Below, piece after piece: positions 33,702 through 41,812 of a stretch of 64,000 nucleotides of DNA. Origin of the DNA: Arenimonas caeni. GTDB lineage: Bacteria; Pseudomonadota; Gammaproteobacteria; Xanthomonadales; Xanthomonadaceae. The notes under the pieces are model-generated. The model was given only the letters and a program-made list of their open reading frames with translations, was not told where the DNA came from and ran no database searches. Position numbers and translations under genes: made by a program. Positions within the stretch are counted from its first letter, which is position 1; the number at the start of each line of letters is the position of its first letter. The DNA lies in contig NZ_KZ679085.1 of NCBI RefSeq assembly GCF_003024235.1, positions 186,001-250,000 of the forward strand, read 5' to 3'.

Positions 33702-34586
33702 ATGTCGTTCAAGCCGAACCGCGTGAATGCCCCTTGCCCTGCCCTGCCCGGCGTGGGCCTGCTTGCCGTCGAAGGCCGCGACGCGGCGGCATTCCTGCAG
33801 TCGCAATCGATGAACGACGTCGCCGCGCTCGACGATGGCCGATGGCACTGGAATGGCCTGCTGACGCCGAAAGGACGCGTGATCTTCCTGTTCGCACTGC
33901 TTCGCACCGGGCCGGAATCATTCCTGCTCGTGTCGCCCGACGCGGACGCCGCGGAGGTGAAGGCGCACCTGCAACGATTCTTGTTCCGCAGCAAGCTCGT
34001 GCTGCGCGATGACGCCGGCCTGGCCGCCGCCGCTGGCCCGTTTGCGCAAACCGATGATGTCTCGCGCATCATCCGCGCCGACGACGGCGCGCTGGCGCTC
34101 GACGTTTCCGGCGAAGGCGGCCAGCGCACGCTCTGGCTGCTGCCGGCCGGCCATCCGTCGCTGGCCGCAGCCGACCCGGCCACCACGGCCGCCTGGCGCC
34201 TGGCCGACCTTGCCCACGGCTTGCCCCGGCTTTCGCCCGGCCAGCGCGAGGCCTGGACGCCGCAGATGCTTTCGCTCGAACGCCTGGGCGCCTTCAGCCT
34301 GAAGAAGGGCTGCTACCCCGGCCAGGAGATCGTGGCGCGCACCCATTACCTGGGCCAGGCCAAGCGCACGCTGCAGCGCCTGGCCGGCACCGGAACGCTG
34401 GCGGAGTCCACCCCGGTGCTGGGCGACGGCGGGCGCGAGCTCGGCCGCTTGGTCTGCGTCGCCGACGCGGGCGATGGCCGCGTGGAGGCGCTGGCAGTGC
34501 TGCCCGCCGAACTGCCGGCGGAAGAGACGCTGGTGGCCTCCACGCCCCTGTCCCGGCTACCCCTGCTCGGCGGCCTGGCGCGCTGA
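33702..34586 (+). CDS. ygfZ: Folate-binding protein YgfZ (Fe-S cluster repair/assembly)
   Basis: 294 residues of the GcvT-like COG0354 family that uses tetrahydrofolate to support certain Fe-S enzymes. The signature KGCYPGQEIVART (about 204-216), with its invariant Cys, is present; RWHWNGLLTPKGR near residue 50 is also typical. It is divergent from the sdh run, a common neighbourhood for ygfZ, and SdhB is an Fe-S client type. Confidence 0.95.
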   Translation: MSFKPNRVNAPCPALPGVGLLAVEGRDAAAFLQSQSMNDVAALDDGRWHWNGLLTPKGRVIFLFALLRTGPESFLLVSPDADAAEVKAHLQRFLFRSKLVLRDDAGLAAAAGPFAQTDDVSRIIRADDGALALDVSGEGGQRTLWLLPAGHPSLAAADPATTAAWRLADLAHGLPRLSPGQREAWTPQMLSLERLGAFSLKKGCYPGQEIVARTHYLGQAKRTLQRLAGTGTLAESTPVLGDGGRELGRLVCVADAGDGRVEALAVLPAELPAEETLVASTPLSRLPLLGGLAR

Positions 34587-37028
34587 TCAGTCCGCGGCGC
34601 AGGCGGTCCACGCCGCCTGGCACTCCAGCAGACACATCGCCCTGGCCACCACCGCCGGGTCCGTGCCACCCCCCGGCGGCTGGCGGTCGAGCTCGCCCAG
34701 CTCCTGCATGAGCCGGGCGTGGCCGGCGCAGCTGCAGTCGCACTGGCCGCCCCCTGTCGAGGCACCGGCGGCCGCCTCGCCCGGGCTCCCGGCGCCGCCC
34801 GGCTGCGGGCCGGCGCGAAGCGGGCCGGGCATCCGGTCCGAGATGGCCATCGCCACATCGTCGGCCTCCGGCGCGACGGCGGTGTAGCGGTCGTCGCCCG
34901 CCCAGGGCTGGCCCACCAGGAAGCGCCCCTCGACCTTCCCGACCACCGGCAGCCGGGGCCGGTCCTCGCTATGGGCATTGGGCAGCGGCAGCTGCACCAG
35001 CTCTCCCTCGAAACGCCCGCGGAATACGAGGGCATCGTATTGCTCCACGTGCACCCGGCCGCTGGCGGGGAAATAGGCCAGCCGGCCGGACTCGACGTCG
35101 TGCGGGCCGCGGCTCACCGCCTCGCTGCCCTCGCCGGCCACGCTGATCAGCACGTTCTCGACCGTGCCCGTAAAACCATGCTCGAGCTGCGGCATGCGGA
35201 TCCGGACCGCCTGCTCGTCGAGGCTGCGCAGGGCGTCGGTGGCGCGGGAGGCGACGAAGGATTCCAGGCGGCCGGCCTGCTCCGCCGGCGCCTCGGACAG
35301 GCCGGGAGCCTGGTGGGCCAGCCAGCGCGGCAGGCGGCGCAGCACCAGGCTCATCACCGGCCCGCATTGGGTACGGGCATCGGCGTGCGGCCAGCGACAG
35401 CCGGCGTCCACGCCGGGGTCGGTCTCGCGGACCAGCTGCGCCGTCCCGGGGCCGTGCGTGACGGCTTCGCTGTCCTCGCCACCCGGCGCCGGCAGGGGGC
35501 GCCGGCGCGCCGGGGCCGGCATGCCGGCCGGCTGCGGCACGGGGCCGGTCCACTGCCAGCCCGGCACCGAGACATGGATCGTGGGCTTCGAGCGCCCCGA
35601 CTGCGAGGGCGTCCGGGCGACGTTGGCGATGACCACTTCCCGGCTTTGCCCGGGCTCGAGCAGGACCACCCAGCTGGCCACCGAGTGGCTGGGATGGTCG
35701 TGCACCGTGGCCGCCACCGCGCTGGTCTGGCCGACCTCGCCCAGCCAGAGCGCGCGGGCCTGCGCGGCACTCACCTCGGCACGCAGGTCCACCGCCAGCA
35801 CGCCGGCCAGGCTGTCGTCGCGGTGCAGGCGCAGGCACCGGGCGCTGATTTCGGGCAGGTCCAGCGCCACCTTCACGTCCACGCCCAGCGCCGCCGCCAG
35901 GCTGACGTCGGGACAGTCCTGGAACAGCACCTTCAGCACGTTCTCGTGCCTCTGCGGGATCGGCAGCACCCCGTCGACGCGATGCCGGCCGAACTCGGCG
36001 ATCACGGTCACCAGGTCGGCGTAGACACGATCGAAACGGGTGGCCAGCCGCGGATCGGCGCGCAGCCAGCCGTCGATCCAATCGAGCGTCTGCCCGCCGT
36101 CCCGGAGCCGTGGCGCCTGGGAAAACATGCGCACCAGATAGCCGTAGTCGAAGGCATCCCTCCGGACCACGCGCCCGGGCCCGGGCCGCGGCGGCGGACT
36201 GGCGGGCGACTGCATGGCCCGCTCGAGCTCCGCCAGGTAACGCCAGAACGAACTGCTTCCGTAGCCCAGCCGCGTCCTCGTCTCCGCCTTGGCGTCCGGG
36301 CCGGTGTGGAAGGCCTCGTGGTAGGCGCGCAGACCCCACCGATTGAACGGATCGTGGTGCGTACGCACGCGCCTGAGGCGCCAGGCCATGTCGTGGCCGA
36401 TCGCCTCGGCAGTGCCCTCGTACAGCCACATCGGGGGCTCGCAGTTGGCCTCGAAGTAGGCCGTCCCGCGCTGCACGGCATGGAACAACTCGTGCGCCAG
36501 GTCCGCATAGCCCTTGTCGGTGAGCTGGTCGAGCATGCCCGGCGAGTTGCCGGTGGCGATGGCCAGGCGGTTGCGCAGACCTCTCGGCCCCTCGGTCCGG
36601 GCGTTCAAATGCATTTCCCGGCGCCCGCCCTCACCCTGGCAGCGGTAGCCCATGATCGCCACGTCCTCGGGGTTTCGCCCGGAGTGCCCAGGATCCCCGA
36701 AGGCATACCAGTGGACCCGGTAGGCGCGGCTGCCGTCCGCACGGGTGACGATGGGCTCGAGCGCGGGGGGCGGGAAGCCCATGCGCTGGTACTCGGTGGC
36801 GACTTCGGTGAGGTAGGCGTCCATCTCGGCTTTGAGCTGCGGAGACAGCGGCTCGAGGCCGCGGCCGGCGAGCCGGGCCAGGTCCGCGGCCGCGTCGGGC
36901 ACGGCGCTGCCGCTGCCTTCGTGGACCTCGAACGCCAGGGTCGGCCACCGCGGGGCGGCCGCCAGTGCCGACGCCGTCGTGGCCACCGCCAGGCTGATCG
37001 CCAGCCCCGCCCCTGCCAAAAGCCTCAT
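34587..37028 (-). CDS. Large secreted putative zinc metallopeptidase with Cys-rich tail
   Basis: 813 residues, family not recognised. A signal peptide (about 1-24) is followed by a globular region with HELFHAVQ (H179, E180, H183). WLYEGTAEA has a Glu at 204, twenty residues after the second His. HExxH with a downstream EGxAE is the gluzincin-type zinc site. The middle (about 350-560) carries beta-rich, Pro-rich segments. Two related stretches, GEDSEAVTHGPG and GEGSEAVSRGPH, hint at a duplicated unit. The tail, QCDCSC then C-x3-C-x6-C at the very end, should form disulfides or bind metal. The ATG at 37028 follows AGGGGG. It stands alone between ygfZ (convergent) and a divergent binding-protein gene. 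Substrate unknown. Confidence 0.7.
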   Translation of the reverse strand: MRLLAGAGLAISLAVATTASALAAAPRWPTLAFEVHEGSGSAVPDAAADLARLAGRGLEPLSPQLKAEMDAYLTEVATEYQRMGFPPPALEPIVTRADGSRAYRVHWYAFGDPGHSGRNPEDVAIMGYRCQGEGGRREMHLNARTEGPRGLRNRLAIATGNSPGMLDQLTDKGYADLAHELFHAVQRGTAYFEANCEPPMWLYEGTAEAIGHDMAWRLRRVRTHHDPFNRWGLRAYHEAFHTGPDAKAETRTRLGYGSSSFWRYLAELERAMQSPASPPPRPGPGRVVRRDAFDYGYLVRMFSQAPRLRDGGQTLDWIDGWLRADPRLATRFDRVYADLVTVIAEFGRHRVDGVLPIPQRHENVLKVLFQDCPDVSLAAALGVDVKVALDLPEISARCLRLHRDDSLAGVLAVDLRAEVSAAQARALWLGEVGQTSAVAATVHDHPSHSVASWVVLLEPGQSREVVIANVARTPSQSGRSKPTIHVSVPGWQWTGPVPQPAGMPAPARRRPLPAPGGEDSEAVTHGPGTAQLVRETDPGVDAGCRWPHADARTQCGPVMSLVLRRLPRWLAHQAPGLSEAPAEQAGRLESFVASRATDALRSLDEQAVRIRMPQLEHGFTGTVENVLISVAGEGSEAVSRGPHDVESGRLAYFPASGRVHVEQYDALVFRGRFEGELVQLPLPNAHSEDRPRLPVVGKVEGRFLVGQPWAGDDRYTAVAPEADDVAMAISDRMPGPLRAGPQPGGAGSPGEAAAGASTGGGQCDCSCAGHARLMQELGELDRQPPGGGTDPAVVARAMCLLECQAAWTACAAD

Positions 37029-37086
37029 CCGCACCCCCTGGTTGATTCCGGATCCACGCAGGATCGCGGAACTGCCCGCCACGTCC

Positions 37087-37115
37087 TTGGCCGCCGGCCC
37101 GTTGTCTGTTATACC
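37087..37115 (+). promoter_or_regulatory. Candidate sigma-70 promoter for the PhnD-like gene
   Basis: TTGGCC (37087-37092) and TATACC (37110-37115) are separated by 17 nt, each matching four of six consensus bases. The predicted start lies roughly 15-20 nt before the ATG at 37139, leaving a short leader with a GGGAGG ribosome site. Confidence 0.45.
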
Positions 37116-37138
37116 CGCGACACAGGGAGGAACACCGA

Positions 37139-38032
37139 ATGAAGCTCAAGACAGGCCTGATGGCATTGGCGCTGGCGATGGCGGGGACCACCGCCTCGGC
37201 AGCCGACTACACGCTCGTGGTGGAACCAAACTACCGACCCGCGCAGGCGCAGCAGATCTACCAGCCCCTGCTCGACTACCTCTCGGCCGCCACCGGCCAC
37301 AACTTCAAGCTCAAGACCTCGGCCAACTACCACGTGTACTGGCGCGACCTGCGCGCCGGCATGAAGGTGGACTTCGCCTTCGAGGAGGAGCACTTCACCG
37401 GCTACCGCATGGGCCGCCTGGGCTTCACCCCGCTGGTGCGAACCGCCGAGCCGACGCGCTATTCCCTGCTCGCCGACGCCATGATCGCCGAGGAAGGCGT
37501 CCCGGGCCTGATCGGCCGTCCGGTGGTGAGCATGCCGGCGCCGAGCATGGGCAACCTGCTGCTGGGCGAGCTCTACCGCAACCCGATCGCCTCGCCGGAT
37601 ATCAAGTCGGTGGCCTCGGGCTGGCGCGACGGCGTGGAGATGATCTTCTCGCAGGAGACCGATGCGGCGATGGTGCCCAACTACATCGCGCAGCTGTACC
37701 CGAACCTGGTGGTGGTGTCCGAATCGCGCGAGTTCACCGGCCGCACCCTGAGCGCCGCCGGCACCGTGCCCTCCGACGTCCGCGAGGCCGTCGCCGAAGC
37801 CATGCTCAAGCTGCACGAGGACCAGGCCACCTACGAGGTGCTGGTCGAGCTGGGCACGGCGCAGTTCGTCCCGGCCAACGCCGCCGACTATGCCGAGAGC
37901 GAGAAGCTGCTGTCCGGCGTGTTCGGCTACAAGCCGCGCCCGTCGCAGGCCGCGCCCGAGGAGCTCGAGCAGGCCACCATCGACCTGGACGACGAGAACT
38001 TGGGCGGCATCGAGGTCACGGCCGGGGACTGA
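37139..38032 (+). CDS. PhnD-like periplasmic substrate-binding protein (orphan)
   Basis: 297 residues. A signal peptide (about 1-21, cleaved after ASA) precedes a PhnD/phosphonate-binding-like fold: YTLVVEPNYRPAQAQQIYQPLLDYLSA is the family's opening, seen here across residues 23-49. FAFEEEHFTGYRM is the strand-2 region and APSMGNLLLGELY the second-domain entry. No ABC permease or ATPase gene is adjacent, unlike true PhnCDE. An acidic C-terminal tail (about 265-297) is unusual. It may serve as a sensor or envelope protein instead of a transporter receptor. Ligand unknown. Confidence 0.75.
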   Translation: MKLKTGLMALALAMAGTTASAADYTLVVEPNYRPAQAQQIYQPLLDYLSAATGHNFKLKTSANYHVYWRDLRAGMKVDFAFEEEHFTGYRMGRLGFTPLVRTAEPTRYSLLADAMIAEEGVPGLIGRPVVSMPAPSMGNLLLGELYRNPIASPDIKSVASGWRDGVEMIFSQETDAAMVPNYIAQLYPNLVVVSESREFTGRTLSAAGTVPSDVREAVAEAMLKLHEDQATYEVLVELGTAQFVPANAADYAESEKLLSGVFGYKPRPSQAAPEELEQATIDLDDENLGGIEVTAGD

Positions 38033-38972: not shown

Positions 38973-41237
38973 TCAGGCCATGCCCTCGGCCATCGCCACG
39001 ATGTCGTCGTCGGACGGGATGACCAGGAAGGCCGCGCCCGCCAGCGGCGTATAGGTGTCCTCGCCGACCACGCGGCGCAGCGGCTTGGCGCCGTGGCCGG
39101 CCTCGACCACCGCCGTGATCACGCCCTCGCCCACGCCGGCCGAGCGCCGGCCCTCGTCGACCACCAGGATGCGCGCACACTCGCCGGCATGCCGGGCAAT
39201 GGCCTCCGCGTTGAGCGGCTGGAGCCAGCGCAGGTCCACCACGCGCACCTTCCAGCCCTTCGAGGCCTCGATGCGGCGGGCGGCGCGCAGGCTCATCGGC
39301 ACGCCGTTGCCGAAGGTGAAGACGACCAGGTCGGTCGCTTCCGGCGCGTAGACCCGCTCCTGGCCCAGGACCATGGCCTCGTCGGTCGGCGGGTAGCTGG
39401 TGAGCCACTGGCCGTCGCCCGCCTCGTACAGGTCCTTGGTCATGTACAGCGCGATCGGCTCGAGGAAGGCGCAGACGCGGCCATCGACCCTGGCCAGCGC
39501 CATCATCGTGCGCAGCATGGTCGCGGCGTCGTCGCCGCGGCTGGGGCAGCCGACCACCAGGCCCGGGATGTCGCGCAGGGCGGTGATCGAGTTGTCGTTG
39601 TGGAAGTGGCCGCCGAAGCCGCGCTGGTAGCCCAGCGAGGCGATGCGCATCACCATCGGGTTGCGGTACTGGCCATTGGAGAAGAACTGCAGCGAGCAGG
39701 CCTCGCCGCGGATCTGGTCGCAGGCGTTATGGAAGTACGCCAGGTACTGGATCTCCGGCATCGGCAGCATGCCGACGTTGGCATAACCCTGGGCCAGGCC
39801 CAGGATCATGGTCTCGTCGAGCAGCGTGTTGAACACGCGGGCGTTCTTGAACGCCTTGTGCAGGCCCTTGGTGACCGTGTACACGCCACCCTTCTGCGCC
39901 ACGTCCTCGCCGAACAGCAGCGCCTCGGGGTACTTGCAGAACAGGTCGTGCAGGGCCTGGTTGATCTGGATCGCCAGGTGCTTCGGCGGCTGGTTCTCGG
40001 GCAGCTTCGCCTCGCTGCCGAACACCGCCAGGCGCCTGTCGGCGAAGTCGCTTCGCGCGGCCTCGGCGGCCACCTTGTCCGGGGTGTAGGGCGCAAGCGG
40101 CGCGACCACGTCGGCCAGCTCGGTCAGCTTCGGGCGGCGGTCGGCCTCCTCGGCGGCGGCGAAGCAGCGTGCGCGCATGGCCTCGTACTTCGCCAGCAGC
40201 TCGTCCTTCGACATCAGGCCCGAAACCAGGGCGATCTCGGCCGAGCGCAGCAGCGGGTCGGTGGCCTCGACCCCCATCAGCTCCTCGATGCTGCGCCACT
40301 CGATCTCGAAGTCGGTGCCGGCGTGGCCCATGATGCGGGTGGTCTTGAGGTGCAGGAAGGTCGGCCGGCGGGTGCGGCGGCAGTGCTCGACGGCGGCCTG
40401 CACCTGGCCGTAGCCGCCGGCGATGTCCAGGCCGTCGGCGAAGAAGTAGTCCAGGCCCTCGCGGTGGCGGAAGGCATTGCCGATCCAGCCGCCCGGCGTC
40501 TTGACCGAGATGCCGATGCCGTTGTCCTCGCAGACGAACAGCACCGGCGCCGGCAGGCGCTGGTAGGCCGTCCACTGCGCGGTGTTGAAGGCCGTCTGCG
40601 CGGTGGCGTGGTTGCTCGAGGCGTCGCCGAAGCTGCAGATCGTGATCGAGTCATCGGGGATCGGCAGCGCGTGGCCGATCCGGCGGGCCTGCTCGATGGC
40701 AATCGCCGTGCCCAGGGCCTTGGGCAGGTGCGAGGCGATGGTCGAGGTCTGCGGCAGCACCCACAGCGGCTTGCTGCCCCAGACCTTGTGCCGGCCGCCC
40801 GAAGCCGGGTCGTCCTTGCTGGCGGCGAAGCTCAGCGCCGAGTCCATCACCGGGTCCATGCCGGGCAGCTTGCGGAAACGCTCGGCCATGAAGCCACCCG
40901 AGCGGTAGTGCAGGAACGCCGGATCGGTGTGGCGGGTGAGGCGCGCCACCATCGCATTGCCTTCGTGGCCGCTCGAACCGATGGTGTAGAACACCTTCTG
41001 CTGCACGCGCAGCACGCGCGCCATCAGGTCGAGGTGGCGCGAGACCAGCTGCGACTCGAACAGGGCCAGGAAGTCGGCCGCGGTGCAGGCGCTGCCGTCG
41101 AGCACGGGCTCGTTCGGCGCCGGCCGGTGCATCGCCTTGCCGGACCAGCCCTGCACGAACTCGATGAAGTTGTCGTCGCAGACCTTGGCGCGGTTGACGT
41201 CTTTGTGGCGGGCGGGGATGGGTTTGGCGACGGACAT
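38973..41237 (-). CDS. Fused E1 alpha-beta 2-oxoacid dehydrogenase-type enzyme
   Basis: 754 residues carrying both halves of a thiamine-diphosphate E1. The alpha part (about 1-390) has HYRSGGFM and the ThDP motif GDASSNHATAQTAFN (GDG-type). The beta part (about 420-754) has LLFGEDVAQKGGVYTVTKGL and the closing DEGRRSAGVGEGV region. It resembles branched-chain 2-oxoisovalerate dehydrogenase E1 encoded as one polypeptide. No lipoyl E2 or E3 gene lies nearby, so its acyl acceptor is encoded elsewhere or differs. The ATG at 41237 follows a purine-rich stretch; upstream extension is not protein-like. Confidence 0.85.
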   Translation of the reverse strand: MSVAKPIPARHKDVNRAKVCDDNFIEFVQGWSGKAMHRPAPNEPVLDGSACTAADFLALFESQLVSRHLDLMARVLRVQQKVFYTIGSSGHEGNAMVARLTRHTDPAFLHYRSGGFMAERFRKLPGMDPVMDSALSFAASKDDPASGGRHKVWGSKPLWVLPQTSTIASHLPKALGTAIAIEQARRIGHALPIPDDSITICSFGDASSNHATAQTAFNTAQWTAYQRLPAPVLFVCEDNGIGISVKTPGGWIGNAFRHREGLDYFFADGLDIAGGYGQVQAAVEHCRRTRRPTFLHLKTTRIMGHAGTDFEIEWRSIEELMGVEATDPLLRSAEIALVSGLMSKDELLAKYEAMRARCFAAAEEADRRPKLTELADVVAPLAPYTPDKVAAEAARSDFADRRLAVFGSEAKLPENQPPKHLAIQINQALHDLFCKYPEALLFGEDVAQKGGVYTVTKGLHKAFKNARVFNTLLDETMILGLAQGYANVGMLPMPEIQYLAYFHNACDQIRGEACSLQFFSNGQYRNPMVMRIASLGYQRGFGGHFHNDNSITALRDIPGLVVGCPSRGDDAATMLRTMMALARVDGRVCAFLEPIALYMTKDLYEAGDGQWLTSYPPTDEAMVLGQERVYAPEATDLVVFTFGNGVPMSLRAARRIEASKGWKVRVVDLRWLQPLNAEAIARHAGECARILVVDEGRRSAGVGEGVITAVVEAGHGAKPLRRVVGEDTYTPLAGAAFLVIPSDDDIVAMAEGMA

Positions 41238-41257
41238 GATTGGCTCGCTGGAAGGGA

Positions 41258-41812
41258 TCAGGCGCGCAGCGCAAGGCGGTTTTGCCGCCATTGCCCGCGC
41301 GTCTGGCCCCAGAGTTGGGCGGGTTGGTTTTCGTAGGGTGGCGGCAGCCGGCACGGGCCGCGCAGCGTGGCCCCGAGCCGGCGGGCGACCGCCTGGGACG
41401 GAAGGTTGTCGGGCGCGATGGTCTGGATGATTTCGGTCCAGCCCAGGTGGTCGACGGCCCAGTCGATGCAGGCCGCGGCCGCTTCGGTGGCGTATCCCCT
41501 GCCCCAGGCGTCCCGGGCCAGCGAGTAGCCGACCTCGGTGCCGGGCCAGCCCTCGGGCTGCCACGGGCCGGCGCGGCCGACCCAGCGGCCGGTGTCGCGC
41601 TCGAACACCGAGAAGAACGAGAAGCCCTGGACGTGCCAGGCACCGACCACGGTGAGCAGGCCGCGCCAAGCCACGGCGCGCGGCTGCACGCCGCCGAGGT
41701 GGTGCATGGCCACGGGGTCGGCGCTGAACGCCGCCCAGGCCTCGAAGTCCTCGCCCCGCACCGGCCGCAGGCGCAGCCGGTCGGTCAGGAGTTCGAGTCC
41801 GTCGATGGCCAT
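41258..41812 (-). CDS. GNAT family N-acetyltransferase (RimJ/RimL type)
   Basis: 184 residues. LLTDRLRLRPVRGEDFEAW opens the domain as in RimJ-like enzymes, and GYSLARDAWGRGYATEAA is the acetyl-CoA loop (QxxGxA-like). It ends with VARRLGATLRGPCRLPPPYENQP. It probably acetylates a protein N-terminus or a small amine. It is 20 nt upstream of the E1 gene and probably co-transcribed. Confidence 0.88.
   Translation of the reverse strand: MAIDGLELLTDRLRLRPVRGEDFEAWAAFSADPVAMHHLGGVQPRAVAWRGLLTVVGAWHVQGFSFFSVFERDTGRWVGRAGPWQPEGWPGTEVGYSLARDAWGRGYATEAAAACIDWAVDHLGWTEIIQTIAPDNLPSQAVARRLGATLRGPCRLPPPYENQPAQLWGQTRGQWRQNRLALRA

What the first reader, a model, noticed from the sequence alone, without database searches (positions are those of the whole stretch)
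34587..37028. Unfamiliar 813-residue secreted HExxH protein with CDCSC tail
Signal peptide, HELFH with a Glu twenty residues later, a repeated GEDSEAV/GEGSEAV unit and a tail of six cysteines (CDCSC then C-x3-C-x6-C) form a combination I cannot assign to a named family. It stands alone and may be a new surface or secreted protease, or a wall-acting enzyme.
Basis: partly seen in the sequence, partly recalled or inferred. Interest (0 to 1): 0.65.

Follow-up and report, generated by a model that had tools for sequence, protein, structure and literature searches.

The report
Secreted zinc protease with cysteine tail
This gene of an Arenimonas-type bacterium most likely encodes an exported zinc-dependent protein-cutting enzyme from a rare, unnamed family, and its odd six-cysteine tail is a conserved, movable mini-domain that also turns up on unrelated exported proteins.

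Summary
The ORF is real: minus strand 37028-34587, 813 aa, signal peptide, HELFH at 179-183, E204, six-cysteine tail at 763-810. The GEDSEAV/GEGSEAV "repeat" is chance-level and not conserved. It belongs to a rare, patchy, uncharacterised family (Gamma-, Beta-, Alphaproteobacteria, Nitrospirota, Acidobacteriota). In aligned members covering the site, HExxH (24 of 24) and the third-ligand Glu (23 of 23) are invariant; an Ala three residues on and a Tyr 76 residues after E180 are also kept. An AlphaFold model places residues 30-433 closest to the M30 gluzincin lugdulysin (Z 15.2); residues 365-489 resemble the PPC/collagen-binding domain of ColG (Z 8.4). The tail, CxCxC-loop-C-x3-C-x6-C, is conserved from Acidobacteriota to Proteobacteria and portable: it sits C-terminally on an unrelated exported neighbour, N-terminally on another exported protein, and once on a separately encoded second half. 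The gene lies between ygfZ and a phnD-like gene, which are direct neighbours in every other Arenimonas genome where both could be seen, so it is a recent gain. No Pfam, NCBIfam or PDB family reaches threshold. I read it as an exported gluzincin endopeptidase; substrate and tail function are unknown.

The parts
34587..37028 (-). whole gene, 813 aa exported HExxH protein
   Evidence: homologues in this frame
37034..37039 (-). Shine-Dalgarno-like AGGGGG, 5 nt before ATG
   Evidence: sequence printed
36957..37028 (-). signal peptide (about residues 1-24, Ala-X-Ala type, no lipobox)
   Evidence: sequence; full-length relatives start with a similar hydrophobic segment
35979..36941 (-). catalytic domain, residues about 30-350, M30/M36/M1-like gluzincin fold
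   Evidence: AlphaFold model; VIA-align (7bb8_A Z 15.2 over model residues 30-433)
36480..36494 (-). HELFH, residues 179-183 (predicted zinc ligands H179 and H183, general base E180)
   Evidence: invariant in 24 of 24 covering rows
36417..36419 (-). E204, predicted third zinc ligand, in W-x-x-E-G-x-A
   Evidence: 23 of 23 covering rows, A207 also 23 of 23
36261..36263 (-). Y256, predicted transition-state Tyr (76 residues after E180; lugdulysin E242/Y315 are 73 apart)
   Evidence: Tyr in 22 of 24 non-gap rows; lugdulysin numbering from the 7bb9 title
35562..35936 (-). PPC / collagen-binding-like beta domain, residues 365-489, with predicted disulfide C372-C398
   Evidence: 1nqj_B Z 8.4 (108 aligned); C372/C398 always together
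34911..35363 (-). second beta domain, residues 556-706, no clear fold match; holds the GEGSEAV copy
34599..34742 (-). six-cysteine module, residues 763-810: C-x-C-x-C-x31-C-x3-C-x6-C, predicted helical hairpin
   Evidence: helices 767-782 and 791-812
33702..34586 (+). left flank: ygfZ-like gene whose stop abuts the stop of the finding
37139..38032 (+). right flank: phnD-like periplasmic binding protein gene, ancestral direct neighbour of ygfZ

Best explanation
An exported zinc metallo-endopeptidase of the gluzincin type, from an undescribed family. The signal peptide sends it across the inner membrane. H179, H183 and E204 hold zinc, E180 activates water, and Y256 stabilises the transition state. 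A PPC/collagen-binding-like domain and a second beta domain hold substrate or surface. The tail folds as a small disulfide-stapled helical hairpin (most likely C765-C803 in the middle, flanked by two further bonds) that acts as a separable binding or docking module. The gene was gained recently as a single gene. Shown: conservation, architecture, portability of the module, and an empty site in sister genomes. Inferred: zinc binding, proteolysis, disulfides, the role of the accessory domains. Unknown: substrate, and whether the protein stays in the periplasm or leaves the cell.
For: Invariant HExxH, E204 and A207, and Tyr at 256 in 22 of 24 rows. E+3 = Ala matches the third zinc ligand and 'basement' Ala described for flagellinolysin (PMC5595980). 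Model residues 30-433 best match lugdulysin (M30), then M36 and M1 peptidases. The family profile's best PDB sequence hit is also lugdulysin, at a non-significant E 0.1. Weak but consistent NCBIfam hits to HExxH families occur in 23 and 19 of 27 members. PPC-like domain by fold. Signal-like N-termini in full-length members. Cys pairs C372/C398, and mostly C130/C196, are present or absent together. Tail conserved and portable. Empty ygfZ-phnD site in sister genomes; the tree places the protein with a betaproteobacterial relative, not with the A. donghaensis homologue.
Against: No family model reaches its cut-off. Foldseek by E-value lists no M30/M36/M1 peptidase in its first 50 rows; the M30 match comes from the second-look aligner. 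Overall model confidence is moderate (pLDDT 75.6, pTM 0.63), with low-confidence linkers. One relative (G583, L026) has lost HExxH but keeps the tail, so catalysis may not be the only function. No biochemical data exist.
Confidence: 0.74

Rival explanations
1. A wall- or envelope-acting metalloenzyme: a gluzincin fold that cleaves peptidoglycan stem peptides or envelope lipoproteins rather than general protein.
For: In G178 the homologue is flanked by genes for exported proteins with PG_binding_1 domains, one of them also with DUF4412.
Against: That neighbourhood is seen in one genome. The window gene has no such neighbours and no wall-binding domain was found in it. Known gluzincins of this fold cut proteins (established knowledge).
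Confidence: 0.12
2. A pseudo-peptidase: an exported binding protein built on the peptidase scaffold, with the beta domains and Cys module doing the work.
For: G583/L026 keeps the tail and downstream domains without HExxH; L049 encodes the beta-plus-tail half as a separate exported protein.
Against: HExxH, E204 and A207 are invariant in the aligned family over very large divergence, which is not expected without selection for catalysis.
Confidence: 0.1
3. A secreted protease whose C-terminal beta-plus-Cys part is cleaved off, or acts as a separate partner or inhibitor of the catalytic part.
For: The two halves are two adjacent genes, each with its own signal peptide, in L049. Long low-confidence linkers at 492-554 and 732-761 separate the parts.
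Against: All other complete members with the tail are single chains. No direct evidence of cleavage.
Confidence: 0.2

Closest known systems
Lugdulysin / hyicolysin, MEROPS family M30 (PDB 7bb8, 7bb9)
   Same: Gluzincin fold (Z 15.2, 276 residues), HExxH, third Glu in a W-L-x-E segment, Tyr 73-76 residues after the catalytic Glu
   Different: 12% identity; no significant sequence match (profile E 0.1); the window protein adds PPC-like and beta domains and a six-Cys module
Flagellinolysin (NF033876) and M9 collagenases
   Same: HExxH plus E-x-x-A third-ligand motif; PPC/collagen-binding-like domain after the catalytic part, as in clostridial collagenases
   Different: 22 bits against a cut-off of 205; no flagellin regions; no Pfam M9 match
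MXAN_6640 family putative metalloprotease (NF045524)
   Same: Best NCBIfam match, hit by 23 of 27 members, covering most of the catalytic domain in several
   Different: 25 bits against a cut-off of 140; no held paper names it, so its function is also unknown
Disulfide-stapled helical hairpins (alpha-hairpinin type), for the tail only
   Same: Two short helices predicted, cysteines placed to face each other
   Different: CxCxC on the first side and C-x3-C-x6-C on the second instead of two CxxxC; no significant sequence match in PDB

Membership tests
Gluzincin, MEROPS clan MA(E) | HExxH zinc-binding motif in a helix | tested here: met
   H179-H183 in predicted helix 171-187, 24 of 24 rows
Gluzincin, MEROPS clan MA(E) | Glu third ligand on a following helix | tested here: met
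   E204 in predicted helix 200-219, 23 of 23 rows
Gluzincin, MEROPS clan MA(E) | Thermolysin-like two-subdomain fold | tested here: met
   Best solved match lugdulysin Z 15.2, then M36 Z 10.7 and M1 Z 10.5; a predicted model only
Gluzincin, MEROPS clan MA(E) | Bound zinc and peptidase activity | not testable with these tools
   needs protein
M30 (hyicolysin/lugdulysin) | Significant sequence similarity to family members | tested here: not met
   Profile of 27 members against lugdulysin E 0.1; no M30 model returned by Pfam for any member at E 0.1
M30 (hyicolysin/lugdulysin) | Fold and active-site spacing | tested here: met
   Z 15.2, 276 aligned; Glu-Tyr spacing 76 against 73
MXAN_6640_HExxH (NF045524) | Score above curated cut-off of 140 bits | tested here: not met
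   25.4 bits
Flagellinolysin (NF033876) | Score above curated cut-off of 205 bits; peptidase inside a flagellin | tested here: not met
   22.1 bits, only residues 177-213 aligned; no flagellin match in Pfam
M9 bacterial collagenase | Pfam/NCBIfam match to M9 catalytic region | tested here: not met
PPC / collagen-binding domain | Jelly-roll-like beta domain after a secreted peptidase | tested here: inconclusive
   Fold match Z 8.4 to ColG s3b, no sequence match
eCIS_core (PF13699) | Score above cut-off of 22 bits | tested here: not met
   12.5 bits over 22 residues around HExxH

The most novel reading that the evidence does not exclude
The CxCxC / C-x3-C-x6-C tail is an undescribed, mobile domain of exported bacterial proteins: a three-disulfide helical hairpin that is shuffled between peptidases, a cysteine-rich exported neighbour and a small exported protein, and serves as a shared docking or binding part of an envelope or secreted protein set.
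Probability: 0.45. Interest if true: 0.5.

Novelty: new variant of a known kind. Interest (0 to 1): 0.42.

Why it matters
It adds an unnamed family to the gluzincin peptidases, with clear active-site predictions that one mutant can test. It also points to a small cysteine module, without a Pfam model found here, that moves between exported proteins of several phyla. A defined domain would let annotators recognise these proteins, and the split-gene and pseudo-enzyme members give natural tests of what the module does.

Tried and rejected
The plus-strand translation of the interval was searched first by mistake; the long plus-strand ORF there (34719-37142) is a shadow ORF of high-GC DNA. Pfam, NCBIfam and PDB sequence searches gave no family. 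The first genome-contig scan with the single protein found nothing; the alignment scan did. Plasmid, phage and viral-contig searches found nothing. Tail searches across class and phylum found only members already seen or weak hits of 18-25 residues, taken as chance. The second model, of the C-terminal part alone, was of modest quality (pLDDT 68) and gave no match above Z 5.2. Conserved gene neighbourhood across loci: none beyond close relatives. The GE(D/G)SEAV repeat was rejected.

Full report
What is there. The ORF runs on the minus strand from ATG at 37028 to the stop at 34587 and encodes 813 residues. It starts with a signal-peptide-like segment and has HELFH at 179-183 and E204. Its 12 cysteines are at 130, 196, 372, 398, 544, 555, 763, 765, 767, 799, 803 and 810. 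The long plus-strand ORF over the same stretch is a shadow ORF. The GEDSEAV/GEGSEAV pair is no better than shuffled sequence gives (40 of 200 shuffles hold an equal or better self-match) and relatives do not share it.

Where it lives. The window is part of contig C2 of a 2.95-Mb genome. Its same-genus neighbour G016 is Arenimonas donghaensis, because the match sits on a contig of the same length and position as L050, so the genome is an Arenimonas (Lysobacteraceae) as the database groups it. In the other genomes of the genus where both genes are seen at this place, ygfZ is followed directly by the phnD-like gene. In the seven loci I compared closely (L059, L060, L061, L063, L067, L068 and the window), the stretch before phnD keeps a TGTCTGNTATACC-like sequence, and in the window that sequence survives to the right of the insert. 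Only the window genome has the 2.44-kb gene in between. Its GC (0.737) and GC3 (0.91) do not stand out strongly from neighbours. I take it as a recent single-gene gain. The tree of catalytic domains puts it with a betaproteobacterial MAG protein (97/91) and then a Lysobacterales MAG protein (95/93), away from the A. donghaensis homologue. Branches are long, so deep forks are unsure.

The family. Relatives are few: 4 of 149 relatives including its own genome, 15 of 397 genomes of the order including its own, 3 of 369 of the class including its own. A pattern scan of the collection of 84,980 species gave 28 loci in Gamma-, Beta- and Alphaproteobacteria, Nitrospirota, Acidobacteriota and, weakly, a myxobacterial MAG. 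None was found in plasmids, phages or viral contigs. The window's own genome has a second member on contig C10, shared only with A. donghaensis among the genus genomes searched (59% identity).

Catalytic part. Over 27 aligned rows HExxH is kept in 24 of 24 that cover it, E204 in 23 of 23, A207 in 23 of 23, and Tyr at 256 in 22 of 24; the two exceptions are a His in L049 and a residue from a broken piece of L037. In flagellinolysin the third ligand Glu262 and the basement Ala265 have the same E-x-x-A spacing (PMC5595980). The AlphaFold model is mostly at pLDDT 85-98 around the active site. Among solved structures it is closest to lugdulysin, Z 15.2 over 276 residues, then M36 and M1 peptidases. 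Lugdulysin's mutated residues E242 and Y315 (entry title) are 73 apart; E180 and Y256 here are 76 apart. A profile of the family also picks lugdulysin first in PDB by sequence, but not significantly (E 0.1). NCBIfam's MXAN_6640 and flagellinolysin models hit 23 and 19 of 27 members; for the window protein both scores lie far below the cut-offs. So it works like a gluzincin, and it is not a member of M30, M9, MXAN_6640 or flagellinolysin as those are defined.

Downstream part. Residues 365-489 resemble the ColG collagen-binding/PPC domain (Z 8.4). C372 and C398 occur together in 22 rows and never singly; C130 and C196 nearly always co-occur. Residues 556-706 are a beta domain without a clear match; that part was tested only with a modest model.

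The tail. CxCxC, a loop of varying length, then C-x3-C-x6-C is found in most members, including Acidobacteriota (L056) and, in variant form, Nitrospirota (L038); the last gap is 7 in L031 and 8 in L039. It is absent from one branch (L044, L045, L046, L047) and from the A. donghaensis/L048 pair. In the C10 paralogue and its A. donghaensis orthologue both middle cysteines are hydrophobic (C to L, and C to L or M) while the outer four remain. This fits a middle-to-middle disulfide C765-C803, but it is one evolutionary event. The predicted structure is a helical hairpin; I could not inspect coordinates. A tail profile found it in two other kinds of exported protein. One is a 462-aa cysteine-rich protein encoded close to the peptidase in G252 (L096); its relatives in G178 and G125 match only up to residue 418-419, so no tail was found there, while its own tail matches the peptidase tails of G178 and G211 at 59 and 56% identity. 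The other is a 239-aa protein in G292 that carries the module at the N-terminus after the signal peptide (L093). In L049 the beta-plus-tail half is a separate gene with its own signal peptide. In G583 a member keeps the tail and has lost HExxH. The tail is therefore a module in its own right and not a plain C-terminal sorting tag, since it may stand at the N-terminus or be followed by a long extension.

Function. I take it as an exported zinc endopeptidase whose PPC-like domain, beta domain and Cys module bind substrate or surface. In G178 the operon-like neighbours are exported proteins with PG_binding_1 and DUF4412 and a relative of the cysteine-rich protein, which hints at the envelope. The window gene has no such company, so this hint is weak. 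Zinc binding, activity, disulfide pattern and substrate all remain to be shown at the bench.

Noticed in passing
own genome contig C10:892-3459 (L098, L028): Second family member, 856 aa, with a four-cysteine tail (both middle cysteines replaced); ortholog in A. donghaensis at 59% identity and in no other genome of the genus searched.
   Followed up: partly
L096:205-1593: 462-aa cysteine-rich exported protein beside the peptidase in G252 with the same C-terminal Cys module; holds HPACRDHDDCLDRC, which recalls a phospholipase A2 active site but has no Pfam match.
   Followed up: partly
L093:1399-2118: 239-aa exported protein with the Cys module at its N-terminus right after the signal peptide.
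   Followed up: partly
L049:5953-8836: Family member split into two adjacent genes (catalytic half, beta-plus-tail half), each with a signal peptide.
   Followed up: partly
L026 minus-strand ORF of 847 aa (G583): Homologue that has lost HExxH but keeps the downstream domains and the Cys tail; a likely pseudo-enzyme.
   Followed up: partly
L100:5099-10514: Operon-like set in G178: PG_binding_1 protein, HExxH protein, DUF4412 plus PG_binding_1 protein, cysteine-rich exported protein.
   Followed up: partly
L045:1828-5688: Next to a tail-less member in Hyphomonas johnsonii: an astacin plus FG-GAP protein and a second exported protein with a VOMI-like match.
   Followed up: no
window 38973-41669 minus: 898-aa ORF that appears to fuse the alpha and beta parts of a 2-oxoacid dehydrogenase E1 (from reading the translation only).
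   Followed up: no
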